Source: Oscillatoriales cyanobacterium
GTDB lineage: Bacteria > Cyanobacteriota > Cyanobacteriia > CACIAM-69d
Assembly: GCA_004292515.1 (NCBI GenBank)
Contig: RDXB01000064.1
Coordinates: 1 to 32,737, forward strand
Length of the DNA: 32,737 nucleotides
Reading direction: 5' to 3'
The notes below the pieces were generated by a model that was not told the origin of the DNA, did no database searches, and saw only the letters and a list, made by a program, of their open reading frames with translations. The position numbers and the translations under genes are program-made. Positions 7,663-23,518 of the stretch are shown here, one piece after another. Numbering within the stretch: the stretch's first letter is position 1; each line of letters starts with the position of its first letter.

Positions 7663-9375
7663 CTAGCTGAATAATTCGGGCACACGTCGCCGCAGGGCCG
7701 CGTTCAACTCCGGTAGCCGATCGCGCAGGTCTCGATACCAGCGATCGCGCTGCCGGTAATGCTGGCCCATCAGCCGGTTCTGAGCCACCCACTGGTAGGC
7801 GTTTTGGGCCAGGGTTTGGCGCAGTTGGGGATATTGCACCAGCGCCACCAGCTTTTGTTCAAAATCAGCGGGGCTGTAGTACAACAGTCCCGTTTCCCCG
7901 TCCACCAGGGTTTGGTTGTAGACCACCGGGCCGGCCAGGGCCACCGTGCCATTGCCCGCACATTCAATGAATTTCAGATCGGACTTCATGTTGTTAAAGC
8001 GGTTGTGCTCCAAGGGCAACAGGGCAATATCGCTTTGGCGCAACAGTGCCGCATATTCCTCATAGGGACAGAAAGGGCGGAAGGTTTTGTGGGGCGTTTG
8101 CAGGGCTTCAAAAAAGCGGCGATCGTGGATCACATGCACCAACACGCGATCGCCCAGGGCATTCACCACCCGGTTAATCCCATCGATCAAGGGTCGCCAA
8201 TCGTTCTCGCGGTTCAGCGCCCCAAAAAAGAGGGTGACGGGCTGCTGGGGATCGGACTGGCACGGTGGCGGCAACTCCGCGAGCTGGTTGGGAAACACAC
8301 CCACGTAGGGATTCACCTGCCGCAAAAAGGCTGCCAGCGGTTCCGTGGAGGTTTGGATCGCATGGACGCTGCGATAGGCAAAAAAGTTGGTCTTTTCGGT
8401 GCGGGCCCAGCGGTAGGGGTCGTCATCGATTTCGAGGATGATCACGTATCCTCGGGCCAGCAAGCGCCGCTGTTGTTCGAGGTCGGTTTCGGGGCTGAGG
8501 ATTGCCCGTTGCCAAATAAACACCGGTTCTTCGTGGGGTTGGAACGCGCCCGCGTTGGCGTTGCGATCGCCCGAAATCGCTCGCACGCCGGGAATCCGAT
8601 TCAAAAACTGATTGGGTTCCGTGACGCGCACCCGCTTGCAGACCTTCGCTTCCATCACTAGGGTTTGCACAAATAAATGACGCTGGGGACTTTCGCCTGG
8701 CCGCACGGCCCGCACCAGGTATTGGACGGCGGCGCTTTGCTGGTTGAACTCGGCTCGATCGACCCCTAGCCGATCGAGTAGGGGCCCGATCGCTTCCTGA
8801 AACTTGTCGCGCATCTCGTCGGGACGGGTGCGGCCGCGAATTTCCGCCACCTCTAGCCCTGCTGATTGGAACAGATGCTCGATCGACTCCCGAGTAAAAA
8901 AGCGCAGATGGCCGCGATCGAGCAGCCCATGATCCGCGTAGTGCCAGTGGCCGGCCAGTAGGTCGGCGATCGCTGTCCAATATTGGATATTCGGCACACA
9001 GGCGATGATCTGCCCGCCCGGAGCCAGCCAACGCGCATGGTGGGCCAGGGTTTGCCAAGGATCGATAAAGTGCTCCAGCACATCGCCATAGATCAGACAA
9101 TCGACGCTCTCAGGTGGGATGTCAGCGGCCAATGCCGGGTCTTCCGCATTGCCCACATAGACGCGATCGAGCCGGGTTGCCGCAATTTGAGCCGCCGCCG
9201 GATCTTGCTCCAAGCCCACATAAAAACCGTGGGGGTTAATCCGCTTGTAAGCCTGGGCCAAGGCCCCCGTGAAACAGCCCACCTCGACAATCGATCGCGC
9301 ATCACCCGGCAGCAGTTTCAACAAATCTGCATTGTGAATGTCGCTGTAGGCCAGCGGGGCGGCTTCAGAAGTCAT
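7663..9375 (-). CDS. Fusion of SAM methyltransferase and GT4-like glycosyltransferase
   Basis: 570 residues in two parts. Residues about 1-225 are a class I methyltransferase: SAM motif [14 protein letters not shown] (about 30-43), acidic residue in YVGLEQD, then [16 protein letters not shown] and [13 protein letters not shown], as in the Methyltransf_11/23 group. Residues about 235-560 resemble the C-terminal half of a GT-B glycosyltransferase: [51 protein letters not shown] and [16 protein letters not shown], the usual donor-nucleotide region. It probably decorates a surface polysaccharide or glycoprotein; acceptor and sugar are unknown. It converges on hhoA and stands alone. The start ATG is at the divergent border with the repeat-rich gap. 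Confidence 0.85.
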
Positions 9376-9980: not shown

Positions 9981-10739
9981 ATGGCAGGTCTCTTCCAAAT
10001 TGGCTCCAATGTCATCCAAGCGCATGAAATGCTGTCGCTGCTGAGTCGATATCATCTCATGCCTCAGTTTCTGCGTGGCTTGGTGATCGATAGCGCGATC
10101 GCAGAAGTGGACTTTACCGAAGAAGAACGTCAGCAAGCTATCTACAACTTTCGGATGCAACACCGCATCGTTTCCGATGAGGATGTTCAACGATGGATGC
10201 AAGAAAATAACCTCTCGGTCGAAGGGCTTGAGGAGCTGGCGATTCGGCCCATGCGCCTCGAAAAGTTTAAAGAAGCTAAGTTTTCGCGTAAGGTCGAAAA
10301 CTATTTCGTCAGCCAAAAAAGCCGGCTCGATAAGGTGGTTTACTCCCTGATTCGTGTGCAAGATGAAGGCTTGGCCCACGAAATCTATTACCGAATTGAA
10401 GAGGGTGAATCCAGCTTTGCAGAGATGGCCCGCACCTATTCCCAGGGGCCAGAAGCCCAAACCAATGGACTACTTGGCCCCGTTCCGCTCAACCAACCCC
10501 ACCCGTTCATTGCCCGGATGTTGGAAGTGAGCCAACCGGGCCAGCTTTGGCCCCCTCGGGCCCTAGTTGAATGGTTTATTATTGTGCGGCTGGAGCAACT
10601 GATGCCGTCGCAATTGGATGAGGCGATGCGCCGACAACTGCTCGATGAAATGTTTGAAAACTGGATGCGAGAACAAATCCAACAGATGGGAACACCTCAG
10701 CTGCTTTGGGCTGCGTCGGAACCCGGTGCTCAGGGGTGA
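9981..10739 (+). CDS. Parvulin-type peptidylprolyl isomerase (PpiC/SurA-like)
   Basis: 252 residues from ATG 9981; a TTG at 9945 would add 12 residues with no family support. An N-terminal SurA-like helical region (about 1-115, e.g. QFLRGLVIDSAIAEVDFTEEER) precedes a parvulin domain (about 118-215): IEEGESSFAEMARTYSQGPEAQTNGLLGPVPLNQPHPFIARML, then PPRALVEWFIIVRLE. No signal peptide is visible, so it is probably cytoplasmic. It lies 240 bp upstream of the HlyB-like exporter and its HlyD partner on the same strand. A PPIase of this kind next to such exporters suggests a chaperone that keeps the export substrate foldable; that role is inferred. Isomerase activity is likely but not certain from the sequence. 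Confidence 0.87.
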   Translation: MAGLFQIGSNVIQAHEMLSLLSRYHLMPQFLRGLVIDSAIAEVDFTEEERQQAIYNFRMQHRIVSDEDVQRWMQENNLSVEGLEELAIRPMRLEKFKEAKFSRKVENYFVSQKSRLDKVVYSLIRVQDEGLAHEIYYRIEEGESSFAEMARTYSQGPEAQTNGLLGPVPLNQPHPFIARMLEVSQPGQLWPPRALVEWFIIVRLEQLMPSQLDEAMRRQLLDEMFENWMREQIQQMGTPQLLWAASEPGAQG

Positions 10740-10981
10740 GGATGAATCCAACTCATCTAGTTGTGCGGTTTGTGCTGCCCTTTGTCTTAGCGCGGGGCCA
10801 CGCTCCAACGGGTCGGATGGTTCCCTGGCAAGGATGCGATCGCGCTAGGGGGTGGGGAGTCCGATTCCCTTGCCGATCGCGTCCCGATCGCCTTCGATCA
10901 TAAAATCCTGCCTGCCCCCAGTTCGCCTCCGCCTCACCTCCGATTCATTGCCGTACGCCGTTTTTGCCTTTGCCTGGAGTT

Positions 10982-13900
10982 ATGACTCAAGCCGCTAGCC
11001 TTCAGCAAATCCAAGGGTTTCTGGCGGAGACCGATCCATTCGATCGCCTCAGCCCCGCCAGTATCGAACGCTTGCTCCAGGGGGCCCAGTTTCTGCGGTA
11101 CCGAGTTGGCCAACCCCTACTCGATCGCCAAACCCTGCCCGCCCAAGTGGCCGTGCTGTTTCAGGGCCAGGTGCGCGTTCTGGGGTTCGATGAGCGATCG
11201 CAGCGGCCTGTGAGTCTGAAGCTGGCCACGCCCGGCGAAGTTTTCGGCTGGGGCAGCTTGATGCGCGGCATTGCTTGCGAAACGGCGATCGCCTCCACCG
11301 AAGTCACCTGCATCAGCATTCCCGCCACCGATTTCATCGCCGTCCTGGCTGAGGATGCGACCTTCCGCCAGGTCTGGGAGTCGCGCTGTAGCTTGTGCGA
11401 ACTGTTTGGCCTCCTGAGCCAAGAACTCCAACGCCAAGCCGATCGCCGAGGCAACCTCAAAGACATCACCCTGCGGATGCTGGACTCGGTGCAAACCCTG
11501 CACCTGAAGTTGGGCCCCGTAAATGAAGCCACCCTGGAGCGGTTAATTGACCCCCAGATGATGTGGCTGTTGAGTGGCGGGCAAGTGGAAACGGCCAGCG
11601 GCAAAATTGTGGCGGGCGATCGCTTGATTTGGGGTGGCAGCGGCACGATCACCGTCACGGGCGACGGCCCCGCCCGCGTGGTTGGCCTGACCCAAGAATG
11701 GCTGCGACAACGCACCCCCCAAACGGAAACGGCGATCGCCCCGCCAACCCCGCCCGTAGACATCGTGACCGGCGATGCCAGTGCCGCTGCCCCAGAAGCC
11801 GCCGCCCCCGAGACTCCCAGCAGCGCGCCCCAGCCCGTCGCCATCCCGGAAATTCCCTTTGCACCCGAAAAGCCACCGGAACTGCCCCGCGAAGCCCTGC
11901 TCACCACCCCCGCCACCTACCCCCACGTGCGCGGCCGCGGCCCCATTGCTGGAACCCTGGCTTGCTTCCAAATGATCAACGAGTTCATTCCGGGGCTGCA
12001 ATTCCGCAAGGATCGGATTCGCCGCCTGCTGGAAGACCAGATGCAAGCCACGGGACAAGTTTCGATGCAGGTTTGCGGGGCGATCGCCCAGAGCATCGGT
12101 CTGCGTCCTCAATTGATCCAAATCTCCGGCGTACTGATCAACCGGCTGAAGGCCCCGGCGATCGTCCCCTGGAAAGACGGCTTTGCCGTAATCTACGACA
12201 TCTCCGAAACCCGCCTAATCATGGCCAGCCCCGAGGAAGGGGTGATGCGCAAAACCCCCCAGGAATTTCTTGAAACCTGGGGCGAATCGGGCATGATCCT
12301 GTTGCTGGAAGCCCCCGTTGAAGACCTTCCCGAAAAATTTGGTCTCAGTTGGTTTATTCCTTGGATCTTGCCTTACAAGCGCGCCTTGATCGAGGTGGTC
12401 GTCGCCTCCTTCTTCGTGCAGACCTTTGGGCTAGTGCAGCCGATCATCACCCAGGTGATCATCGACAAGGTGTTGGGCCAGGGCAGCATCGAAACCATGG
12501 ATGCCCTCGGCTTCTTCATGCTGGGCGTGGCAGTGTTTGAAGGGGTGCTCAACATCCTGCGCACCTACCTGTTCATTGACGCGATGAACCGGATCGACAT
12601 GAACGTCGGTTCCGCGATCATCAGCCACCTGATGCGCTTGCCCCTGGGCTACTTCGACATCCGCCGGGTCGGTGAATTGGCCGGTCGGGTCAACGAACGC
12701 GACAGCATTCGGAACTTCCTGACCGGCACGGCCCTGACCGTCTTTTTGAACGCCATCTTCTCGGTGATTTATATCGTCGTGATGGTGGTCTACAGTTGGC
12801 TGCTAACCCTGGTGGCCCTGGCCGTCGTGCCGATTTTGGCGGGGATTATCGTCTTTGCTGCGCCGATCATCCGTCAGTTAATTCGTAAGCAGGCCGAGCG
12901 GCGCGCCGATGTGGACTCCTACATGGTGGAGGTGATTTCCGGGTCACAAACGGTGAAGGCCCAAAACATCGAAACCAAGGTGCTGTGGCAGTGGCAAGAG
13001 CGCTATGCCCGGATGATCCAGGCCAACTTCAAAACGATCATGACTGGCACGACGATCGGGGGGGCCACGTCCTTCCTGAATAGTCTGTCCACCTTGGCTC
13101 TGCTCTGGGCGGGAGCCTACCTGGTGATTGGGGGGCAAATTACCCTCGGGCAGTTGATCGCCTTCAAGATTTTGGCGGGGAATGTGACCGGCTCCCTGTT
13201 GAGCTTGGTCGGGGCTTGGCAGCAGGTGCAGGAAATTTCGATTTCGGTGGAACGTCTGGCGGATATTGTCGATAGCCAGCCGGAGTCGAGCGATGCCGAT
13301 CGCAACAACATTCCAATGCCGGAAGTGACCGGTTCGGTGAAGTTCACGGATCTGTCGTTCCGTTTTGCAGAGTCGGGGCCCCTGCAACTGGCCAACGTCA
13401 ATCTGGAGTTTCCGCCGGGCACCTTTGTGGGGATTGTGGGCGAGTCCGGTTCGGGTAAATCCACCCTGATGAAGTTATTGCAACGGCTTTATGCGCCCAC
13501 GGCCGGCTACATCCAAATCGATGGTTACGACATCAGCAAGGTGGAACTCTATTCCTTGCGTCGCCAAATTGGGATGGTGCTGCAAGATACGTTGCTGTTT
13601 ACGGGCACGGTGCAAGAAAACATCATGCTGGCCAACCCGGATGCTACCACCGAAGAAGTGATTCATGCGGCAAAGGTGGCGGCGGCCCACGACTTCATCA
13701 TGCAGCTCCCCAACGGGTACAACACGGTGGTGGGGGAACGTGGCACGGGTCTGTCGGGGGGACAAAAACAGCGGATTGCGATCGCCCGAACGGTGTTGCA
13801 ACAACCCAAACTGCTGATTTTGGACGAAGCCACCAGCGCCCTGGACTACAACTCCGAGCGACAGGTGTGCAACAACCTGGCGGTGGAGTTCCGCAACCGT

Positions 13901-14065
13901 ACGGTGTTCTTCATTACGCACCGCCTGAACACGGTGCTGAATGCGGATTGCATCATCCTGATGGATAAGGGCGCTGTGGTGGAACAGGGCACCCACGAAG
14001 ATCTCATGGCCCTGAAGGGACGCTACTACTGCTTGTTCCAGCAGCAAGAAGGATCGTTTAGCTAG
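10982..14065 (+). CDS. HlyB-like type I secretion ABC transporter with cNMP-binding-like and C39-like domains
   Basis: 1,027 residues from ATG 10982 (an upstream TTG at 10964 would add six). Order: a cyclic-nucleotide-binding-like domain (about 15-135: PLLDRQTLPAQVAVLFQGQVRVLG, TPGEVFGWGSLM); a Pro/Ala-rich linker (about 245-305); a C39 peptidase-like domain (about 312-445); six transmembrane helices (about 465-745); and an ABC ATPase (about 785-1025) with Walker A GESGSGKST, Q-loop VLQDTLLFTG, signature LSGGQKQR, Walker B LLILDEATSALD and H-loop ITHRL. The C39 catalytic Cys is replaced by Gly (AGTLACFQMI where DCGxAALxMI is usual) and the catalytic His by Gly (WKDGFAVIY), so this should be a docking, not a cleaving, domain, as in HlyB. 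The ATPase is intact. Exports an unidentified protein with HlyD and, presumably, TolC. Confidence 0.93.
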   Translation: MTQAASLQQIQGFLAETDPFDRLSPASIERLLQGAQFLRYRVGQPLLDRQTLPAQVAVLFQGQVRVLGFDERSQRPVSLKLATPGEVFGWGSLMRGIACETAIASTEVTCISIPATDFIAVLAEDATFRQVWESRCSLCELFGLLSQELQRQADRRGNLKDITLRMLDSVQTLHLKLGPVNEATLERLIDPQMMWLLSGGQVETASGKIVAGDRLIWGGSGTITVTGDGPARVVGLTQEWLRQRTPQTETAIAPPTPPVDIVTGDASAAAPEAAAPETPSSAPQPVAIPEIPFAPEKPPELPREALLTTPATYPHVRGRGPIAGTLACFQMINEFIPGLQFRKDRIRRLLEDQMQATGQVSMQVCGAIAQSIGLRPQLIQISGVLINRLKAPAIVPWKDGFAVIYDISETRLIMASPEEGVMRKTPQEFLETWGESGMILLLEAPVEDLPEKFGLSWFIPWILPYKRALIEVVVASFFVQTFGLVQPIITQVIIDKVLGQGSIETMDALGFFMLGVAVFEGVLNILRTYLFIDAMNRIDMNVGSAIISHLMRLPLGYFDIRRVGELAGRVNERDSIRNFLTGTALTVFLNAIFSVIYIVVMVVYSWLLTLVALAVVPILAGIIVFAAPIIRQLIRKQAERRADVDSYMVEVISGSQTVKAQNIETKVLWQWQERYARMIQANFKTIMTGTTIGGATSFLNSLSTLALLWAGAYLVIGGQITLGQLIAFKILAGNVTGSLLSLVGAWQQVQEISISVERLADIVDSQPESSDADRNNIPMPEVTGSVKFTDLSFRFAESGPLQLANVNLEFPPGTFVGIVGESGSGKSTLMKLLQRLYAPTAGYIQIDGYDISKVELYSLRRQIGMVLQDTLLFTGTVQENIMLANPDATTEEVIHAAKVAAAHDFIMQLPNGYNTVVGERGTGLSGGQKQRIAIARTVLQQPKLLILDEATSALDYNSERQVCNNLAVEFRNRTVFFITHRLNTVLNADCIILMDKGAVVEQGTHEDLMALKGRYYCLFQQQEGSFS

Positions 14066-14145
14066 GCAGCCGGTTGCTGGGGTGCTAGTGGGCTGGGGCG
14101 ATCGATGGCTGGGAATTCGTTCTGTTGAATGGTGGGTGAGGTTCC

Positions 14146-15684
14146 ATGCTGAAAGCATTTATTGAGAAAGAAGAACAGCCCGTTTTGTTGCAGCGGCCGG
14201 CGGTGCTGGCTAGCTCATTTATTTGGGTGATTGTGACCTTTGTGGTGGGTGGCATCACCTGGGCGGCGGTGGCCCAAATTGACCAATCGGTGCCTGCTGC
14301 CGGTAAGTTGCAGCCTAAGGATGCGACCAAACCGATTAAGGCCCCGGCCGGCGGTGTCGTGCGCGAAATCGTGGTGAAAGACGGTGAGCGTGTGGAAAAG
14401 GGGCAACTCCTGGCTACGTTTGATCCCACGGGCCAAGCGGCTGATGTCCAGTCTCTCAAGGCCAATCGGGCGGCCCTGGTGCGCCAAAAAGACTTGGTGC
14501 GCGCCGAAGCGGCGGGCCTGGGGCTGACCCCAGAAAATCGCACTACTCTTCTGGATTTGCAGCGCAACCGGGCTGTGCGAATTGCGGAAAATGCTTATTT
14601 GCGGGCCCTCCTGCGGGGCGATCGGGCGGCTCCGGCTGGTCAGGCAGGGCGCTTGGCAGAAAACCGGGCGGCCCAAGCATCCCGGCTGTCGCAGTTGCGA
14701 TCGCGCGTGTCGGAGCTGGCTTCCCAAATCAACGAACTGCGCAGCGATGTGGCCAACACCCGTGCCCAGCGGCGAGCCATCCAAATTCGCTTGGGTCAGG
14801 CCCAAGAGCGCTTGAACATTAACCAGGGCATCATTGCGGATTTGCAGCCCCTAGTGGAAGAGGGAGCCGTAGCCCGCCTGCAATTCAAAAACCAGCAGCA
14901 GGCAGTGCTCTCCAACGCTGATGCGGTGGCCACGCTCGAAGGGCAAATTGCCAGCCTCACTGAACAGGAAGCCCGCTTAATGGCTTCGATTCAAACCAAG
15001 CAAGCGGAAATTGCCACGCAACAGGCTGAAATTCGCACGTCACAAACCGGCTGGGCGGCCGACATCGAAAACCGAATTGCCGAAAACGAGCGTACCATAG
15101 CGGATCTCGACACCCAGTTGGCTAAGTCCCGCCTGGATAATCGCCGCCAGGATGCCAACGTGGTGGGGCAACTGGCCCAAGTGGATGGTCAGCTGGTCAA
15201 AGCCGAGCAAGCTGTGCGCTACCAAGAACTGCGCGCCCCGATCGCCGGCACGGTGTTTGACATCAAAGCCAGCGGCCTGGGCTATGTGGCCAGTCCCACG
15301 GAGCCGATTTTGAGCATTGTGCCCGATGGTGAGTTGGTGGCATCGGTTTATGTGACCAACAAGGATATTGGGTTTGTGGAAGTGGGAATGCCGGTGGAAC
15401 TCAGTGTGGACACGTTCCCGTCGTTGGAATTTGGCAGCATCAAAGGCAAGCTGGTGTCGATCGGCTCCGATGCCCTGCCCCCCACTCAGGAGCGCCCCAC
15501 CTACACCTTCCCGATCAGGATTGAACTTGATCGCCAAACCCTAAAAACCAATCGCGGGATTGAACTAAAGATCCAAGCGGGGATGTCGGTGTCAGCGCGG
15601 ATCAAAACCCGCAAGCGATCGGTACTGGATATCTTCCTGGGTCAGTTCAAGTCCCGCGCCGATAGTTTTGAAACGGTTCGTTAA
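14146..15684 (+). CDS. HlyD-family periplasmic adaptor of type I secretion
   Basis: 512 residues. A short cytoplasmic N-terminus, one transmembrane helix (about 22-45, LASSFIWVIVTFVVGGITWAAVA), a half lipoyl motif (KPIKAPAGGVVREIVVKDGERVEKGQLLATFDPTG, about 63-97), a long coiled-coil hairpin (about 105-350, rich in Gln/Ala/Leu/Glu, including ELASQINELRSDVANTRAQRR), the second lipoyl half (ELRAPIAGTVFDIKASGLGYVASPTEPILSIVP) and a beta-barrel region to about 490. It bridges the ABC exporter to an outer-membrane TolC channel. It begins 80 bp after the exporter gene with GAGGT ahead of the ATG, so the two form one operon. The long hairpin is typical of protein exporters rather than small-molecule pumps. 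Confidence 0.94.
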   Translation: MLKAFIEKEEQPVLLQRPAVLASSFIWVIVTFVVGGITWAAVAQIDQSVPAAGKLQPKDATKPIKAPAGGVVREIVVKDGERVEKGQLLATFDPTGQAADVQSLKANRAALVRQKDLVRAEAAGLGLTPENRTTLLDLQRNRAVRIAENAYLRALLRGDRAAPAGQAGRLAENRAAQASRLSQLRSRVSELASQINELRSDVANTRAQRRAIQIRLGQAQERLNINQGIIADLQPLVEEGAVARLQFKNQQQAVLSNADAVATLEGQIASLTEQEARLMASIQTKQAEIATQQAEIRTSQTGWAADIENRIAENERTIADLDTQLAKSRLDNRRQDANVVGQLAQVDGQLVKAEQAVRYQELRAPIAGTVFDIKASGLGYVASPTEPILSIVPDGELVASVYVTNKDIGFVEVGMPVELSVDTFPSLEFGSIKGKLVSIGSDALPPTQERPTYTFPIRIELDRQTLKTNRGIELKIQAGMSVSARIKTRKRSVLDIFLGQFKSRADSFETVR

Positions 15685-15840: not shown

Positions 15841-17427
15841 CTAGAACTTGAATTCGGTACGCAGCACGCCCATCACAGCCGTGTCGCCTTCGTCGTTTGC
15901 GTCAAAGACGGCCACAACGCCCGGAGTCAGGTAAATGTTGTCATTGAGGGCAAACTTGTACATGGCTTCCACCAAGATCGGTGTGTTGTCGTCTTCTTCG
16001 ACCCCATCACCATTCACGACCGTCGGCGGTTGCCCAACAGTCAGCGCGCCCAAGCTGCCTTCCTTGCCCAGGTCGGGGAAGGTAAAGCCCACGGCCCAGG
16101 TCAGGATATCAGCGCTGGCATCGTCATTGTTCAGGCTGTCGGCCCAGCTATAGCCAAAGAAGCCATGCATCCCAAAGTTCTCTGAGAAGCGATATTGGGT
16201 TTGGAAGCCGATGTTGTCGCTGTCGAAGGAATCACCACCAAACAGGTTGAAGGTGGCATCAGTACCCGAGCCGCCCAACACGTTGAAGGGACGATCGACG
16301 CGCGAATAGTAGGAATGGGCGTAGAGCAAACCAGCGGTGAAACGGCGATCGTCGCTGTTGTAGTTCAAGCTGACGCTGCCGCTGTAGCTGCCATCAAACA
16401 AGCCGCGACCGGGATCGGGGCTGGGCGAGTTGCCGGCCGAGTACAGACCCGCCACCGTGAAGTTGTCGCTGAGTTTCCAGCGAATCCCCGCACCACCGTA
16501 GCTGGGCTGACGGTAAATCGGGTTGAGGTTGGCGAAGCTGGTCAATGCGCCGCTACCGTTGCCATGGAGCGGGTTGTGGACGGGGTGAGCATCTTCCAAG
16601 ATCAAGTCTTGACCCACAATTGCCGTGGCGCGATCGCTCAGGGGGAATTCGTAGGCCAAGAAGGTGAGGCGGAAGTTGGTGTCATTGCCGTTGCCGTAGC
16701 TCAGGCGGGTCAAACCTGTCACATCATTCAGCGGGCTTTGGGCGTTTTTAGACTCCAAACGAGTCATCAGCTTATCTTTGCCGGTAAAGCTGGTGACAAA
16801 GACTAGGCGCGTTCGCTGACCAAAGGTGACATTTTCGGCATTGCTGTCTTCGTTTTCGTCATCACCCGTGAAAGTACCACCCTGCATCCCGAAGATGACT
16901 TGACCCGACAGCTTGGTGGTGGTGGAGAACTGATTAGCTTCGAGTTCTGAGGTGCGGGCTTCGAGGGCATCGACGCGACCGCGCAGGGCTGCCAACTCAG
17001 CGGCGAATTCTTCTTGCAGCTTTTGCAGCTTGCGCAGATCTTCCTTGGTGGCCAAGGGATCGGTGGCGGCCTTGATCAGGTCGTTGATGCGATCGAGGCA
17101 GGCATTCAAACCGGCAGCAAATTCGTAGCGGCTCAAGGGGCGGTTGCCCTTGAAGGTGCCATCGGGATAACCCGCAATACAGCCGTAGCGCTCAACTAAC
17201 GATTGCAATGCCTGGAATGCCCAATCCGTGGGCTGTACGTCAGACAGTTGCGACACCGAGGTGACTTGATCAAAGGCAGCAGCATCCGCCTCGATCGCAT
17301 CCAAGGCCGATGCATTTGCGGTCAAATCAGCGGTCGGCTCGGCGGCAGCTCGATCGACTGTTCCCAACAATGCAGCACTGGAGGCAGCCAACGCAGCCAT
17401 CCAGAGTCCATAGCGACTTTTCAACAC
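15841..17427 (-). CDS. SLH-domain OprB-family porin
   Basis: 528 residues. A signal peptide (hydrophobic LWMAALAASSAALLG, cleavage near RAAAE) leads into an SLH domain (about 55-120: LSDVQPTDWAFQALQSLVERYGCIAGYPDGTFKGNRPLSRYEFAAGLNACL), a coiled coil (about 130-165, LRKLQKLQEEFAAELAALRGRVDALEARTSELE) and an OprB/carbohydrate-porin beta barrel ending ...VLRTEFKF with the terminal Phe of outer-membrane proteins. The SLH and coiled coil anchor the protein to the wall. The start is GTG 17427, seven bases after GAGGT; an ATG further upstream (17466) lacks a ribosome binding site and would weaken the signal peptide. Cyanobacterial members are often described as iron or inorganic-ion porins; the solute here is not known. 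TTGACA (17505-17500, minus) may be its -35 box. Confidence 0.92.
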   Translation of the reverse strand: MLKSRYGLWMAALAASSAALLGTVDRAAAEPTADLTANASALDAIEADAAAFDQVTSVSQLSDVQPTDWAFQALQSLVERYGCIAGYPDGTFKGNRPLSRYEFAAGLNACLDRINDLIKAATDPLATKEDLRKLQKLQEEFAAELAALRGRVDALEARTSELEANQFSTTTKLSGQVIFGMQGGTFTGDDENEDSNAENVTFGQRTRLVFVTSFTGKDKLMTRLESKNAQSPLNDVTGLTRLSYGNGNDTNFRLTFLAYEFPLSDRATAIVGQDLILEDAHPVHNPLHGNGSGALTSFANLNPIYRQPSYGGAGIRWKLSDNFTVAGLYSAGNSPSPDPGRGLFDGSYSGSVSLNYNSDDRRFTAGLLYAHSYYSRVDRPFNVLGGSGTDATFNLFGGDSFDSDNIGFQTQYRFSENFGMHGFFGYSWADSLNNDDASADILTWAVGFTFPDLGKEGSLGALTVGQPPTVVNGDGVEEDDNTPILVEAMYKFALNDNIYLTPGVVAVFDANDEGDTAVMGVLRTEFKF

Positions 17428-17837
17428 GATCTTTACCTCACACCAAAAACAGATAAACATCCTCACGCCCTAGCGATCAAGATTGTGGCTCGTCGCAGGT
17501 GTCAAGCTAATAGTAAAAGCTGGTTTAGAACATGATTAAGTATCGTTCATAACTTTTTTTTGGAACTACTAATTCTATGGAGTCAAGAACTACGGACAAT
17601 TCATGGGTCAACGACCGTCAATTCAGCCAAAAGTCGATCTGGCATGAATTTGACAAATAGGGAGAAAGGATTTTTCTGTAGCCTGGTATACAACAAGCCA
17701 GAATTGCCCGCCCTAGGATGACCTTTAAAATCGCGTCAAACCAAGCTTTTTTTATTTATTCTTAAGAGTTTCCTAAGAATTCATTGAAGCTGGTGCAACC
17801 GATTTTTAAGCCAAGCTGAGGAGTGTAAATTACTACA
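17428..17837. other. Divergent control region between porin and urtA
   Basis: About 410 bp carrying the NtcA-dependent urt promoter (separate entry). A weak AT hairpin in the urtA leader has arms ATTCTTA (17758-17764) and TAAGAAT (17774-17780). On the minus strand there is a consensus TTGACA for the porin at 17505-17500, but the matching -10 is poor. No gene is supported here. Confidence 0.7.
17678..17719 (+). promoter_or_regulatory. NtcA-activated promoter of the urt operon
   Basis: GTAGCCTGGTATAC at 17678-17691 is an exact GTA-N8-TAC NtcA box. Exactly 22 bases later is TAGGAT (17714-17719), which fits the TAN3T -10 element of class II NtcA promoters. Transcription should begin near 17726, leaving a leader of about 110 nt to the urtA ATG. 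This predicts urea uptake induced when combined nitrogen is low (high 2-oxoglutarate). Confidence 0.88.
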
Positions 17838-19160
17838 ATGTCCGGTCAATTCAACCGCCGTAAATTTCTGTTTTACGGATCTGCCGCTTTCGGCACCAGC
17901 ATTCTCCTGAAGGCTTGCGGTCAAGCCCCCACAGCAGAATCCTCCCCCGCTGGGAGCAGTCCTGCTGGCAGCCCCGCCGCATCGCCCGCTGCGGGTGGCG
18001 ACACGATTAAAGTTGGCATCCTGCATTCCCAAAGCGGCACGATGGCCATCAGCGAAAAGAGCGTCGTTGATGCGGAACTGCTGGCGATCGAAGAAATCAA
18101 CAAGGCCGGCGGCGTGCTGGGCAAGCAAATCGAGCCGGTAATTGAAGACGGTGCTTCTGATTGGCCCACCTTCGCTGAAAAGGCCAAGAAGCTGATTGAT
18201 CAAGACAAAGTGGTCAGCATCTTCGGGTGCTGGACTTCTGCCAGCCGCAAAGCAGTGCTACCGGTCTTTGAAGAGAAGAAGCACATGCTTTGGTATCCGG
18301 TGCAGTACGAAGGGCAAGAATGCTCGCAGAATATTTTCTACACGGGTGCAGCCCCCAACCAACAAATCGAGCCGGCTGTGGATTGGCTTTTCAAGAACAA
18401 GGGTAAAGAGTTCTTCCTGGTTGGGTCGGACTACGTGTTCCCCCGCACGGCCAACACGATCATCAAGGCCCAAGTTGCCAAGCTGGGTGGCAAAGTCGTT
18501 GGGGAAGACTACATCCCCCTCGGTGGCACGGAAGTCACGCCGATCATCTCCAAGATCAAAGCTGCTTTGCCGAAGGGCGGGGTGATTTTCAACTCCCTGA
18601 ACGGTGACAGCAATGTGGCGTTCTTCAAGCAGCTCCAAGGGGCAGGTCTGGATCCGAAGAAGTACCCGTCGATGTCGGTGAGTATCGCCGAAGAAGAAGT
18701 GAAGGCGATCGGGGTGGAGTACCTCGAGGGCCACTACGCTGCTTGGAACTACTTCATGTCGGTTGATTCACCGGCGAACAAGAAGTTCGTGGATGCCTTC
18801 AAGGCGAAGTATGGTGCCGATCGGGTGACGAACGACCCGATGGAAGCGGCTTACATTGGGGTTTACCTGTGGAAGCAAGCCGTTGAGAAAGCCAAAACCG
18901 CTGACGATCTTGAAAAGGTGCGCGCAGCCGCTTATGGTCAAACCTTCGATGCACCGGAAGGGATGGTGACCATGAACACCAACCACCACTTGTCAAAGGT
19001 GGTGCGGATTGGCGAAATCATGAAGGATGGTCAATTCAAGGTGGTGTTCTCGACCGATAAGGCGGTCAGCCCCGTGCCTTGGAACCAGTTCGTGGCGGAA
19101 ACCAAGGGCTTTGCTTGCGACTGGTCTGACGCGAAGAAGGGCGGCAAGTACAAGATGTAG
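17838..19160 (+). CDS. urtA: Urea ABC transporter substrate-binding protein UrtA
   Basis: 440 residues. The N-terminus has a twin-arginine-like motif (NRRKFLFYG) and a lipobox ending LLKAC (Cys27), then a Ser/Pro/Ala/Gly-rich tether to about 53: a lipoprotein held on the outer face of the inner membrane. The body is a periplasmic-binding-protein type I fold (Peripla_BP_5): [19 protein letters not shown], then [35 protein letters not shown] and [20 protein letters not shown], the last three typical of urea/short-amide binders. It captures urea for UrtBC. It is first in urtABCDE under an NtcA promoter and is followed by a terminator-like hairpin that should leave urtA transcripts more abundant than the rest. 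Confidence 0.96.
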
Positions 19161-19230
19161 AGCGGCATTGGTCTGAGTTGTTCATGGGTGACAAAAACCT
19201 CAGCATCAAACCGTAACCATGGTTGAAATT

Positions 19231-19265
19231 GGGGCAGGCGGCGGTTCAGTCGCTGCCCCTTCTTT
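19231..19265 (+). terminator. Terminator-like hairpin between urtA and urtB
   Basis: GGGGCAGGCG (19231-19240) pairs with CGCTGCCCC (19251-19259) with one bulged G, loop GCGGTTCAGT, followed by TTCTTT. It sits 70 bp after the urtA stop and 123 bp before urtB. A partial terminator here would make extra urtA message. Confidence 0.7.
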
Positions 19266-19388
19266 ATGGCGATCGCAATTCTGGTAATGGGCCAGCGGCG
19301 GCGCGGCTATGGCTCATGACTGGCGATCGCGATCGACACCCTTGTGGGGTTGAAATGCAGCAGACCCACGATTGTTTGGTGAAGTGAA

Positions 19389-20540
19389 ATGCTACTAGAT
19401 GCGATTTTCAGCGGAATTAGTATCGGGTCAGTGCTGCTAGTGGCGGCATTGGGTCTGGCGATTGTGTTTGGGTTGATGGGGGTCATTAATATGGCTCACG
19501 GCGAGCTGATGATGCTCGGCGCTTACACGACGTTTTTAGTGCAAAACCTGTTTAAGTCCTGGGGAGAGGGGGCTTTTGAGGTTTATATTTTTCCAGCCCT
19601 GATTGTGGCGTTCATTGTGACGGCGATCGCGGGGGTGATCTTGGAACGGGGGGTGGTGCGATTTTTGTATGGTCGTCCCCTGGAAACCCTGCTCGCCACC
19701 TGGGGCGTGAGCTTGATTTTGCAGCAGTTTGTACGCAGCGTGAATTGGGTGTTGGTTGCCAGTTTGGGGCTGTTTTGCCTGCTGTTTTTTGGGGCTTGGG
19801 CCGTGCTGGGCAAGCGGGCGAACTGGGTGGCTCTGAAGGCGAAGGCCCTGACGATTTTGCTGCCGGTTTCGGCGGGAATTTCGATCGCCACAGGGGTGTT
19901 GATGGCCCAAAGCTTTAAGTTGGCCGTGACCAAACCCTGGTTTGGGGCCCAAAACGTGGACGTGACTGCGCCCAAATGGTTGCGGGGCGGGATTCCTTTG
20001 GGTGATTTTCAGCTCCCCTCCACGCGGATTTTCATTATTGTGCTGACGATCGCCTGTCTGCTGGGCGTTTATTGGTTCCTGAACAAGTCCCTCTGGGGCC
20101 TACGGATTCGCGCCGTCACCCAAAACCGCAGCATGAGCGCTTGTTTGGGGATTCCCACCAATACGGTGGATTCGCTGACCTTTGCCCTCGGGTCGGGCCT
20201 GGCCGGTGTGGCGGGTTGTGCGATCGCCCTGCTGGGTTCCGTGGGGCCAAACACGGGTCAGAACTACATTGTGGACACCTTCATGGTGGTGGTAGTTGGC
20301 GGTGTGGGCAAACTGGTGGGTTCGATCGTGGCGGCCTTAGCCATTGGCACCGCCAGCTTTTTGATCGGTTCGGGCGCGTTTATCGAACTGTTTAACCAAG
20401 TGCCGCCCCTGAAAGAGTTTTTCACCTTTTTTGCGACTGCCAGCATGGCCAAAGTGATGGTCTTTGCGGCGATCGTCGTGTTTTTGCAGGTGCGACCCGG
20501 CGGCCTCTTTCCGCAAAAAGGGCGCACGGTGGAGTCCTAG
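19389..20540 (+). CDS. urtB: Urea ABC transporter permease UrtB
   Basis: 383 residues. One of two inner-membrane permeases of the branched-chain-amino-acid (LivH) class. Hydrophobic helices run throughout; the N-terminus SGISIGSVLLVAALGLAIVFGLMGVINMAHGELMMLGAY is the family hallmark, with the further markers LERGVVRFLYGRPLETLLATWGVSLILQQ, WGLRIRAVTQNRSMSACLGI (the EAA-like loop contacting the ATPases) and VDTFMVVVVGGVGKLVGS. It pairs with UrtC to form the urea pore. The gap to urtA is 228 bp (hairpin inside) and to urtC 31 bp. Only a weak purine stretch precedes the ATG. Confidence 0.96.
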   Translation: MLLDAIFSGISIGSVLLVAALGLAIVFGLMGVINMAHGELMMLGAYTTFLVQNLFKSWGEGAFEVYIFPALIVAFIVTAIAGVILERGVVRFLYGRPLETLLATWGVSLILQQFVRSVNWVLVASLGLFCLLFFGAWAVLGKRANWVALKAKALTILLPVSAGISIATGVLMAQSFKLAVTKPWFGAQNVDVTAPKWLRGGIPLGDFQLPSTRIFIIVLTIACLLGVYWFLNKSLWGLRIRAVTQNRSMSACLGIPTNTVDSLTFALGSGLAGVAGCAIALLGSVGPNTGQNYIVDTFMVVVVGGVGKLVGSIVAALAIGTASFLIGSGAFIELFNQVPPLKEFFTFFATASMAKVMVFAAIVVFLQVRPGGLFPQKGRTVES

Positions 20541-20571
20541 ATAGCTCAGTGTCTTAGTTGAGGTGATCCGC

Positions 20572-21741
20572 ATGGAAAGTGCCATTCCCAAACCACGCCG
20601 CCGCTTCCCCAAACTCACCCAGGAAGATTGGGTGGCGATCGGACTGTTCGTGATCGCGATGCTCATTCCCCTGGTGCTGTCGGACTTTCGCCTCAACCTG
20701 ATTGGTCGGTTTCTGGCCTTGGCGATCGTCGCCCTCGGCATCGACCTAATTTGGGGCTATACCGGTCTGCTCAGTTTGGGGCATGGGGTCTTTTTTACCC
20801 TGGGGGGCTATGCCCTGGCCATGCACCTCAAGCTGGCCCAAATTCCCGCCGATGCGACTGTCAAACTCCCTGAGTTTATGTCGCTGTATGGCGTAACGGA
20901 ACTGCCCTGTTTTTGGCAGCCCTTTAATAGTTTTCCGATGGCCCTCGTGGGGCTGATTGCCATTCCCGCGATCGCTGGTGGACTGCTGGGCTACTTGGTG
21001 TTTCGCAATCGTATTCGCGGCGTTTATTTTTCGATTCTGACCCAAGCCGCCACGATCGTTTTCTTTAACTTCTTCAACGGTCAACAGAAGCTGATCAACG
21101 GCACTAATGGTCTAACTAACTTCGGGAAATTTCTGGGCTTTGATATTTCCTCCCCCAACACCCAAAAGATTATTTACTTTATTACTTTGGGTGGATTAGT
21201 CATTGCCTACGTGATCTGCCGTTGGCTGATTTCGGGGCGGTTTGGTCGCTTGCTGATTGCCATTCGTGATGATGAGCCGCGCGTTCGGTTTTCGGGCTAT
21301 AACCCCACTGGGTTTAAGGTGGTTGTGTTTGCCGCTTCTGCGGCCTTGGCGGGATTAGCTGGAGCCTTGGTTACCCTGCAAACGGGGATTGTTTCGCCCA
21401 AAACCATGGATATTCCCTTCTCGATCGAGATGGTAATTTGGGTAGCCGTTGGCGGTCGAGCCACGTTGCTCGGAGCTGTGGTTGGCGCAGTGTTAGTCAA
21501 CCTGGGCAAGAGCCTTTTAAGCGAAAAGTTTCCTGAAATTTGGCTATTTTTCCAAGGCGGCTTGTTCTTGCTGGTGGTGATGGTGTTGCCCGATGGAATT
21601 GTGGGTTGGGTCAAGGTGCAAGGGGTGGAATTGTTTAATCGCCTCACGGGTCGATCGCCCCGTCCCATCGCCACTTATCCCAGCCTAGAAACCGATCCCG
21701 AAGTGCAAGTTGAGCGCGAACAGCTCCAAGATAAATCCTAG
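20572..21741 (+). CDS. urtC: Urea ABC transporter permease UrtC
   Basis: 389 residues. LivM-type permease partner of UrtB. A cytoplasmic basic N-terminus (PKPRRRFPKLTQEDW) is followed by multiple helices with the family segments FLALAIVALGIDLIWGYTGLLSLGHGVFFTLGGYA, then FFNGQQKLINGTNGLTNF (a urea-type signature), LIAIRDDEPRVRFSGYNPTGFKVVVFAASAALAGLAGAL and SIEMVIWVAVGGRATLLGAV. ATG 20572 is chosen because GAGG at 20560-20563 lies eight bases before it; a GTG at 20563 overlaps that ribosome binding site. The C-terminal tail is acidic (ETDPEVQVEREQLQDKS). Confidence 0.96.
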   Translation: MESAIPKPRRRFPKLTQEDWVAIGLFVIAMLIPLVLSDFRLNLIGRFLALAIVALGIDLIWGYTGLLSLGHGVFFTLGGYALAMHLKLAQIPADATVKLPEFMSLYGVTELPCFWQPFNSFPMALVGLIAIPAIAGGLLGYLVFRNRIRGVYFSILTQAATIVFFNFFNGQQKLINGTNGLTNFGKFLGFDISSPNTQKIIYFITLGGLVIAYVICRWLISGRFGRLLIAIRDDEPRVRFSGYNPTGFKVVVFAASAALAGLAGALVTLQTGIVSPKTMDIPFSIEMVIWVAVGGRATLLGAVVGAVLVNLGKSLLSEKFPEIWLFFQGGLFLLVVMVLPDGIVGWVKVQGVELFNRLTGRSPRPIATYPSLETDPEVQVEREQLQDKS

Positions 21742-21812
21742 GAATCAGCCCCAGCACAACCCCTGACCATGCCATCAGGACTGCCTCCACCATCCATTTG
21801 AGGGCGTAAGCA

Positions 21813-22586
21813 ATGAACGCACCAGCACCAACCACAGAACCAATCCTCTCGATTGAAAACCTGACCGTGAATTTTGATGGCTTTAAGGCCCTCAACAATT
21901 TGACCTTCAGCATGGAGCCAGGCGAACTGCGCGTGGTAATCGGCCCCAACGGTGCGGGCAAAACCACCTTTTTGGATTCGATCACCGGCAAGGTTCGCCC
22001 CACCCAAGGTGATCTATTTTTTAAAGGTCGCAGCCTTAAGGGCCTCGCTGAATATGAAATTTCCCGCTTAGGCATTGGGCGCAAGTTCCAAACACCGCGC
22101 GTTTACCAAAACCTGACGGTGCGCCAAAACCTGGATCTGTCGGGCAACCAACGCAAGGGTGTGATGCATACTCTATTCCGCAAGCCCCTGCGGGTTGAGC
22201 GCCAATCGATCGACCAACTCTTGGAGATTGTGGGTTTGATGCCCAAGGCTCATCTGCCCGCTGCTTTGTTGTCGCACGGAGAAAAACAACGGCTCGAAAT
22301 TGGGATGCTTGTGGCTCAATCTCCCGATTTATTGTTGGTGGATGAACCGGCGGCTGGCCTAACAGATGAGGAAACCTATCAATTGGGTGAACTGTTGATT
22401 TCCTTGGCCGAAGCCCATTCGATCATTGTGATTGAACATGATATGGAATTTGTGCGCCAAATTGCCCGCAAAGTGACAGTGCTCCATGAGGGTTCTTTGC
22501 TGTGTGAAGGCACGATGGATGAGGTGCAAAACGACGATCGCGTGATTGAAGTCTACTTGGGCAAGGGCGAAGGCGATGAGCATTAG
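21813..22586 (+). CDS. urtD: Urea ABC transporter ATPase UrtD
   Basis: 257 residues. LivG-type ATPase subunit: Walker A GPNGAGKTT (about 48-56), Q-loop region RKFQTPRVYQNLTVRQNL, signature LSHGEKQRLEIGM, Walker B LLLVDEPAAGLTD and H-loop VIEHDMEFVRQIA. The LSHGEKQ signature and the RKGVMHTLF insertion before it are usual in UrtD. It forms a heterodimer with UrtE to power urea import through UrtBC. The gap after urtC is 71 bp; the gap to urtE is 215 bp and contains the repeat array described separately. Confidence 0.96.
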   Translation: MNAPAPTTEPILSIENLTVNFDGFKALNNLTFSMEPGELRVVIGPNGAGKTTFLDSITGKVRPTQGDLFFKGRSLKGLAEYEISRLGIGRKFQTPRVYQNLTVRQNLDLSGNQRKGVMHTLFRKPLRVERQSIDQLLEIVGLMPKAHLPAALLSHGEKQRLEIGMLVAQSPDLLLVDEPAAGLTDEETYQLGELLISLAEAHSIIVIEHDMEFVRQIARKVTVLHEGSLLCEGTMDEVQNDDRVIEVYLGKGEGDEH

Positions 22587-22724
22587 GTGATCAATATCAG
22601 GTGATCAACATCAAGTGATCAACATTAATGGTCATTGTTAACAGCCACATCAGGTGATCAACATCAAGTGATCAACATTAATGGTCATTGTTAACAGCCA
22701 TTAATAAGATGGTGATCAACCGTG
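22584..22724. repeat. 53-bp-period perfect tandem repeat with TGATCA boxes, urtD-urtE gap
   Basis: Two identical 52-bp copies occupy 22596-22647 and 22649-22700 (period 53). Each holds two units of the form GTGATCAACATYAA and ends in GGTCATTGTTAACAGCCA, which contains the palindrome GTTAAC. A related unit GTGATCAATATCAG lies just before copy 1, and GTGATCAACC plus GTGATCACGATCA follow copy 2, so the palindrome TGATCA recurs about six times within 140 bp. No reading frame crosses it. Confidence 0.9.
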
Positions 22725-22801
22725 ATCACGATCAATTGCTCAGGCGTTATTAGCATTCATTTATTAGCATTCATTAGCCTTCTCGGGAGTCAGCAAAAGC
22801 C

Positions 22802-23518
22802 ATGCTAAAAGTTGCCGAATTAAACGTCTACTACGGCGAAAGTCACATTTTGCGTAATGTGGATATGACGGTGCGATCGGGTGAAATGACTTGCTTAATT
22901 GGTCGCAACGGCGTGGGCAAAACGACACTCCTCAAAACGATTGTGGGGCTGCTGCCACCCCGGAGTGGATCGATTTTGATTGAAGACCGGCCGATCGCCC
23001 AGCTCTCGCCCGATCGCCGCGCCAAACTAGGCATTGGCTATGTGCCCCAAGGCCGTGACATCATTCCCCGATTGACCGTGCGCGAAAATTTGCTGTTGGG
23101 TCTCGAAGCCTGTCGCGGCACTGATCGCGCCGGTGCTAATGCTCGCGACCTGACGATTCCCGAAGAAATTTTCGACCTATTTCCTGTCCTCAAAACCATG
23201 CTGAATCGGATGGGGGGCGACCTCTCCGGTGGACAGCAACAGCAACTGGCGATCGGGCGGGCCTTGATGGGTAAACCCAAACTCTTGGTGTTAGATGAAC
23301 CCACCGAAGGGATTCAGCCTTCGATCGTGTTGCAAATTGAAGAAGCCGTGCAACATATCATTCGATCGACCGGCATTGCGGTGTTATTGGTCGAGCAACA
23401 TTTGCACTTTGTCCGCAAAGCCAACTATTACTACGCCATGCAAAAAGGCTCAATGGTAGCCTCCGGTGACACGGGCGAACTCAGCAACGAAACTATTCAA
23501 CAATTCCTGGCGGTTTAA
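22802..23518 (+). CDS. urtE: Urea ABC transporter ATPase UrtE
   Basis: 238 residues. LivF-type ATPase: Walker A GRNGVGKTT (about 34-42), Q-loop GYVPQGRDIIPRLTVRENL, signature LSGGQQQQLAIGRAL, Walker B LLVLDEPTEGIQPS and H-loop LVEQHLHFV. The GVGKTT variant and the QGRDIIPRLTV segment are typical of UrtE. It works as a dimer with UrtD and closes the urtABCDE operon. It is set apart from urtD by 215 bp of tandem repeats and followed by a terminator. Confidence 0.96.
   Translation: MLKVAELNVYYGESHILRNVDMTVRSGEMTCLIGRNGVGKTTLLKTIVGLLPPRSGSILIEDRPIAQLSPDRRAKLGIGYVPQGRDIIPRLTVRENLLLGLEACRGTDRAGANARDLTIPEEIFDLFPVLKTMLNRMGGDLSGGQQQQLAIGRALMGKPKLLVLDEPTEGIQPSIVLQIEEAVQHIIRSTGIAVLLVEQHLHFVRKANYYYAMQKGSMVASGDTGELSNETIQQFLAV

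What the first reader, a model, noticed from the sequence alone, without database searches (positions are those of the whole stretch)
9981..15684. PPIase, HlyB-like exporter and HlyD adaptor as one secretion cassette with a sensor domain
The exporter carries a cyclic-nucleotide-binding-like N-terminal domain, a C39-type domain lacking both catalytic Cys and His, and an intact ABC motor. An adjoining cytoplasmic parvulin and a HlyD adaptor complete it. This implies ligand-gated export of an uncleaved protein substrate with a folding helper. No substrate gene is nearby, so the cargo is orphaned. Whether the N-terminal domain still binds a nucleotide is unclear because the usual phosphate-binding Arg is not obvious.
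Basis: partly seen in the sequence, partly recalled or inferred. Interest (0 to 1): 0.6.

Follow-up and report, generated by a model that had tools for sequence, protein, structure and literature searches.

The report
Cyanobacterial type I protein-secretion operon
These three genes are most likely the general pump by which cyanobacteria push calcium-binding surface proteins out of the cell; the pump is a known type, but its built-in 'sensor' domain and its helper protein lack their expected active sites throughout the group, so what they do is open.

Summary
The three genes are real: a parvulin-like protein (9981-10739), an HlyB-type exporter (start 10964 or 10982, to 14065) and an HlyD adaptor (14146-15684). 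The closest named genome is Limnothrix. The order is not strain-specific: 50 of 60 sampled cyanobacterial loci keep all three in order, and the exporter is in 117 of 139 genomes of the class. Synteny matches the Synechocystis locus of Sll1180/Sll1181, the published exporter and adaptor of the S-layer protein Sll1951. The cargo is not orphaned: this genome has one exporter of this type, one HlyD, one TolC gene and about 20 dispersed RTX proteins. At least eight share a C-terminal module, the usual place of a type I signal. Exporter and RTX proteins co-occur (112/117 with exporter, 3/22 without). 'Ligand-gated' by a cyclic nucleotide is not supported: the fold is a CNBD, but the phosphate-binding Arg is absent in all 60 proteins compared. 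The 'PPIase' is a cytosolic SurA/PrsA-like protein lacking parvulin catalytic residues in all 47 compared; it co-occurs with the exporter (115/117). Best reading: the housekeeping type I secretion system, with a pseudo-CNBD and a putative chaperone.

The parts
9981..10739 (+). Cytosolic SurA/PrsA-like protein with a parvulin (PpiC) fold; no signal peptide; catalytic positions replaced (S122, G156, F199)
   Evidence: PF00639; AF2 model pLDDT 93; SurA/PrsA fold matches; residue conservation
10964..14065 (+). HlyB-type (PCAT-family) ABC exporter, 1033 aa from TTG (1027 aa if ATG at 10982)
10994..11392 (+). CNBD-like domain of the exporter (residues 11-143) with a degenerate phosphate-binding cassette; family signature R-G-x-[PA]-C-E-T-A-I-A-S (residues 101-111)
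   Evidence: PF00027 in 54/54 relatives; fold Z about 17 to PKG CNB-B; residue counts
11456..11695 (+). Second, unnamed beta-rich segment (residues 165-244), modelled with high confidence; may be a reduced second CNBD-like barrel
   Evidence: AF2 model; Foldseek alignments of 245-285 columns to tandem CNB or CNBD + beta-CTD proteins; profile comparison inconclusive
11915..12322 (+). C39-like domain (CLD; residues 318-453) lacking catalytic Cys, His and Asp
   Evidence: PF03412; fold Z 15.3 to PCAT1; alignments to 7n87
12389..13195 (+). ABC transmembrane domain (residues 476-744)
   Evidence: PF00664
13388..13837 (+). ABC nucleotide-binding domain (residues 809-958), motifs intact
   Evidence: PF00005; sequence
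14146..15684 (+). HlyD-type periplasmic adaptor, 512 aa; the only one found in this genome apart from one weak partial match
   Evidence: TIGR01843 above cut-off; own-genome search

Best explanation
This is the housekeeping type I secretion system (T1SS) of cyanobacteria. The exporter dimer and HlyD span the inner membrane and periplasm and dock on the single TolC, encoded elsewhere. Together they export RTX-type, calcium-binding proteins, also encoded elsewhere, in one step without cleavage, using a C-terminal signal. The C39-like domain probably tethers unfolded cargo, as in HlyB. The co-conserved SurA/PrsA-like cytosolic protein probably keeps cargo unfolded or hands it over, as a chaperone and not as a catalytic isomerase. 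The N-terminal CNBD-like domain is most likely a structural or protein-docking domain rather than a cyclic-nucleotide switch. Shown here: the domains, loss of the active sites, conserved gene order, single-copy status, co-occurrence, and the shared C-terminal module. Inferred: transport of these particular cargos and the roles of the chaperone and the CNBD-like domain.
For: Exporter in 117 of 139 genomes of the class at E<1e-9; PPI-exporter-HlyD order in 50 of 60 loci, with PPI and exporter overlapping or abutting in 20 of 56. This genome has one C39-type exporter, one HlyD, one OEP/TolC gene and RTX repeats on about 20 dispersed ORFs. Eight of those ORFs share a C-terminal module: held-out scores 28-49 bits against 6.6 or less for 113 decoy C-termini; all 13 genome-wide matches lie on RTX ORFs. 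RTX co-occurrence 112/117 vs 3/22. PPI co-occurrence 115/117 vs 5/22. Two genomes of one genus carry carbamoyltransferase - rpoC1 - exporter - HlyD - 133-aa Rieske, matching sll1178/slr1265/sll1180/sll1181/sll1182 of Synechocystis 6803 (gene numbers from my own knowledge); that exporter is 48% identical to the window's over its length. Sll1180/Sll1181 are reported as T1SS components for the S-layer protein Sll1951 (PMC11594277, citing Agarwal 2018). A review states that CLD-type exporters pair with uncleaved RTX cargo (PMC8277102).
Against: No secretion data for this organism. The exporter scores just below the curated HlyB cut-off (700 vs 725.6 bits). Five exporter-bearing genomes have no detectable RTX protein and three with RTX have no detected exporter, so some cargo may be non-RTX or some repeats missed. 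Co-occurrence tests ignore phylogeny; many double-negative genomes are small and related. Internal RTX windows also score up to 29 bits with the C-terminal profile, so part of that signal is RTX homology. The Synechocystis identity rests on synteny with gene numbers from memory.
Confidence: 0.85

Rival explanations
1. The CNBD-like domain is a true sensor of cAMP, cGMP or c-di-GMP that gates export.
For: The CNBD fold is confidently modelled and closest to cGMP-kinase CNB-B domains; the domain is kept in 54/54 scanned relatives; eight relatives keep the cassette Glu at position 96.
Against: No Arg at the phosphate position in any of 60 proteins under any plausible register (104 P/A, 105 C, 106 E); the Glu is mostly replaced by Trp; the nearly invariant E106 would repel a phosphate. 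c-di-GMP binding by some CRP-family proteins does not need this motif and was not tested.
Confidence: 0.06
2. The CNBD-like domain binds another small ligand or a redox or protein partner through its conserved R101-G-x-[PA]-C105-E106-T-A-I-A-S loop and modulates export.
For: The loop is strongly conserved: R101 57/60, E106 59/60, C105 53/60. Conservation of a lost site as a new signature suggests a retained role. The DNR sensor domain, a CNBD fold that senses something else (general knowledge), is a Z 16.1 match.
Against: Conserved residues may serve packing or dimer contacts only; no ligand or partner is known; coordinates of the model could not be inspected here.
Confidence: 0.3
3. The exporter is a bacteriocin/peptide exporter (NHLP or PCAT type) with the PpiC-like protein as a peptide-maturation factor, rather than an RTX exporter.
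For: The PPI protein's best NCBIfam hit is TIGR04500, a putative peptide maturation protein (E 4e-15), and NHLM exporter and HlyD models rank among the matches.
Against: TIGR04500 reaches 55.8 of 180 bits; NHLM models are far below cut-off; the C39 domain is catalytically dead in the whole family; HlyB is the best exporter match and RTX genes co-occur strongly.
Confidence: 0.04

Closest known systems
Synechocystis PCC 6803 Sll1180 (HlyB-like) / Sll1181 (HlyD-like) / Slr1270 (TolC) T1SS
   Same: Same exporter architecture and adaptor; orthology supported by synteny in two genomes of one genus (48% identity over the full exporter)
   Different: In those genomes the PPI gene lies elsewhere; cargo of the window's organism is untested
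E. coli HlyB/HlyD/TolC (haemolysin T1SS)
   Same: ABC exporter with inactive C39-like domain, HlyD adaptor, single TolC, RTX cargo with C-terminal signal
   Different: HlyB has no CNBD-like domain, its CLD keeps His83 (PMC8277102), cargo is in the same operon, and no PPIase-like gene is attached
PCAT1 (C39 peptidase-containing ABC transporter)
   Same: Same C39/TMD/NBD order; closest solved C39 domain (Z 15.3)
   Different: PCAT1 cleaves leader peptides; the catalytic residues are replaced here
SurA / PrsA chaperone-foldases
   Same: Same helical chaperone domain plus parvulin fold
   Different: No signal peptide or lipobox, so cytosolic; parvulin catalytic residues absent; genetically tied to a T1SS

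Membership tests
[quoted passage not shown]
   Best curated match is TIGR01846 (700 bits; formal cut-off 725.6 just missed); Walker A/B, signature and H-loop present
[quoted passage not shown]
   TIGR01843 above cut-off
[quoted passage not shown]
   One OEP gene with two OEP repeats, contig C70
[quoted passage not shown]
   Candidates present and share a C-terminal module; secretion not shown
C39 peptidase transporters (PCAT, active) | Catalytic Cys-His-Asp triad | tested here: not met
   G330, G406, S422 at these positions; Cys and His absent in the whole family
CLD-type (inactive C39-like) exporters | C39 fold without catalytic Cys | tested here: met
Cyclic-nucleotide-binding domains (functional) | CNBD fold | tested here: met
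   PF00027; Z about 17
Cyclic-nucleotide-binding domains (functional) | Phosphate-binding cassette with Glu and Arg | tested here: not met
   Arg absent in 60/60; Glu in 8/60, Trp in 37/60
Parvulin peptidyl-prolyl isomerases (active) | Parvulin fold | tested here: met
   PF00639 and fold matches
Parvulin peptidyl-prolyl isomerases (active) | Catalytic His / Cys-or-Asp / His positions | tested here: not met
   S122 invariant 47/47, G156 46/47, no His at position 199 among the common residues; alignments to PrsA and SurA
Synechocystis Sll1180 orthologue group | Orthology by synteny and full-length similarity | tested here: met
   gene numbers of the 6803 locus are from my own knowledge
NHLP bacteriocin export system | Curated NHLM exporter/HlyD model scores | tested here: not met
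   432 of 853 and 424 of 709 bits; HlyD 61 of 156

The most novel reading that the evidence does not exclude
The phylum-wide cyanobacterial T1SS carries a repurposed CNBD that senses a non-cyclic-nucleotide cue, or docks its dedicated cytosolic SurA-like chaperone or cargo, through a conserved R-G-x-P-C-E-T-A-I-A-S loop, making it a regulated or chaperone-coupled variant of type I secretion with an extra core component.
Probability: 0.4. Interest if true: 0.6.

Novelty: new member of a known kind. Interest (0 to 1): 0.35.

Why it matters
It ties a puzzling 'sensor exporter' to the system that builds cyanobacterial surfaces (S-layers and other RTX proteins), gives it a candidate cargo list with a shared C-terminal module, and points to two untested parts, a pseudo-CNBD and a cytosolic SurA/PrsA-like partner, that set the cyanobacterial version apart from HlyBD. 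Both can be tested by knock-outs in Synechocystis.

Tried and rejected
A genome-collection scan with the N-terminal alignment failed for lack of conserved stretches; the TMD alignment worked. I first took L074, L100 and L070 for the Synechocystis neighbourhood; their flanks did not fit; L196/L197 did. Profile comparison of residues 11-143 with 144-252 gave no significant relation (probability 5.6%), so a tandem CNBD is only suggested by the model and Foldseek. No promoter or terminator between the genes beyond chance and no Rfam match. A paper search for parvulin + cyanobacteria + type I secretion found none, in open-access papers only. The NHLP/bacteriocin reading was rejected on scores.

Full report
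What is there. The coordinates and domains are correct. A 252-residue parvulin-like protein (9981-10739), a 1033-residue exporter (10964-14065; an ATG at 10982 may be the true start, since most relatives align from residue 7 or later) and a 512-residue HlyD (14146-15684) lie on the + strand. The closest named relative in a genome-collection scan is Limnothrix sp. (96% identity over the TMD), so this is a Limnothrix-like cyanobacterium.

Conservation. A search of 292 genomes of the phylum found the exporter's N-terminal half in 123 of 139 genomes of the class, 117 of them at E below 1e-9. In 60 fetched neighbourhoods, 50 keep PPI-exporter-HlyD in order and on one strand, six lack HlyD next door, three lack the PPI and one lacks both. 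PPI and exporter overlap or abut in 20 of 56 linked cases, often by the 4-base overlap typical of translational coupling. Eight genomes were searched separately for PPI, six of them with no PPI next to the exporter; all eight have a PPI gene. Phylum-wide, PPI occurs in 115 of 117 exporter genomes of the class and in 5 of 22 without. So the helper belongs with the system, not merely with the neighbourhood.

Active sites. The C39-like domain aligns to PCAT1 (solved as 7n87) so that the catalytic Cys, His and Asp fall on G330, G406 and S422. Cys and His are absent at these positions in the whole family, Asp in all but seven. The conserved C334 aligns to the second, non-catalytic Cys. The CNBD-like domain has a confident fold, but the cassette Glu is W96 here (W 37/60, E 8/60) and no relative has Arg at 104-106; instead a signature R101-G-x-[PA]-C105-E106-T-A-I-A-S is conserved. 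The parvulin domain has S122 (47/47), G156 (46/47) and mostly a hydrophobic residue at 199 where active parvulins have His, Asp/Cys and His (the identity of the catalytic residues is general knowledge). It models as a SurA/PrsA-like chaperone that starts where secreted members begin after their signal peptide. Thus three catalytic or ligand-binding folds are all retained without their active sites.

Cargo. In the window's own genome there is one C39-type exporter; the other exporter paralogues match only the TMD-NBD half, and their ORFs begin directly with membrane helices. There is one HlyD and one TolC-type gene. RTX repeats lie on about 20 ORFs on other contigs. Eight of these ORFs end in a shared module, roughly D..I.DFS.G.DRI.L.GGLT...L......I......LA.V.G..P. 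Each held-out member scored 28-49 bits against at most 6.6 for 113 unrelated C-termini, though internal RTX windows reach 29 bits. A genome-wide search with this module hit 13 places, all on RTX ORFs. Exporter and RTX co-occur in 112 of 117 genomes against 3 of 22 (Fisher p about 5e-16, not corrected for relatedness).

Comparison with the known. In two genomes of one genus the exporter sits between rpoC1 and HlyD, near a NodU-type carbamoyltransferase and followed by a 133-residue Rieske protein. From my own knowledge this is the sll1178 / slr1265 / sll1180 / sll1181 / sll1182 neighbourhood of Synechocystis. Sll1180 and Sll1181 are reported as the ABC and membrane-fusion components exporting the S-layer protein via TolC Slr1270 (PMC11594277; references also in PMC7727718). 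A review states that CLD-type exporters go with large uncleaved RTX cargo with a C-terminal signal, and that the HlyB CLD tethers unfolded cargo (PMC8277102). RTX proteins are most abundant in cyanobacteria (PMC3034196). I therefore file the locus as a member of the T1SS, cyanobacterial Sll1180 type.

What stays open. The roles of the CNBD-like domain and of the SurA-like protein are inferred. A beta-rich segment at residues 165-244 may be a second reduced barrel, unproven. I found no paper describing either feature in the open-access library, which does not hold most subscription journals.

Noticed in passing
window 15841-17466 (-): OprB/SLH porin gene convergent with the HlyD gene: typical cyanobacterial outer membrane porin, not part of the T1SS.
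   Followed up: partly
window 17838-23518 (+): Peripla_BP_5 binding protein, branched-chain-type permease and two ABC ATPases in a row: looks like a urea-type (Urt) transporter operon.
   Followed up: partly
window 7663-9375 (-): Protein fusing an N-terminal methyltransferase with a C-terminal glycosyltransferase-like domain, divergent to the T1SS operon.
   Followed up: no
window 11456-11695 (exporter residues 165-244): High-confidence beta-rich segment between the CNBD-like and C39-like domains without a Pfam name; Foldseek aligns the whole 1-250 region with tandem CNB proteins and with SLC9C1/SOS1 (CNBD plus beta-CTD).
   Followed up: partly
L130 and L162 (Fischerella thermalis), L142 and L171 (Westiellopsis): Some heterocystous cyanobacteria carry two exporter paralogues of this family, which may be cargo-specific copies.
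   Followed up: no
genomes G147, G183, G268 (one genus, 2.8-3.1 Mb): In a genus with small genomes the system seems to decay: G268 has a PPI match with three stops and no exporter, G183 has none of the parts.
   Followed up: partly
L083 9958-12078 (-): A second ABC exporter (706 aa, 33% identity to the TMD-NBD part) directly upstream of the operon in one relative.
   Followed up: no
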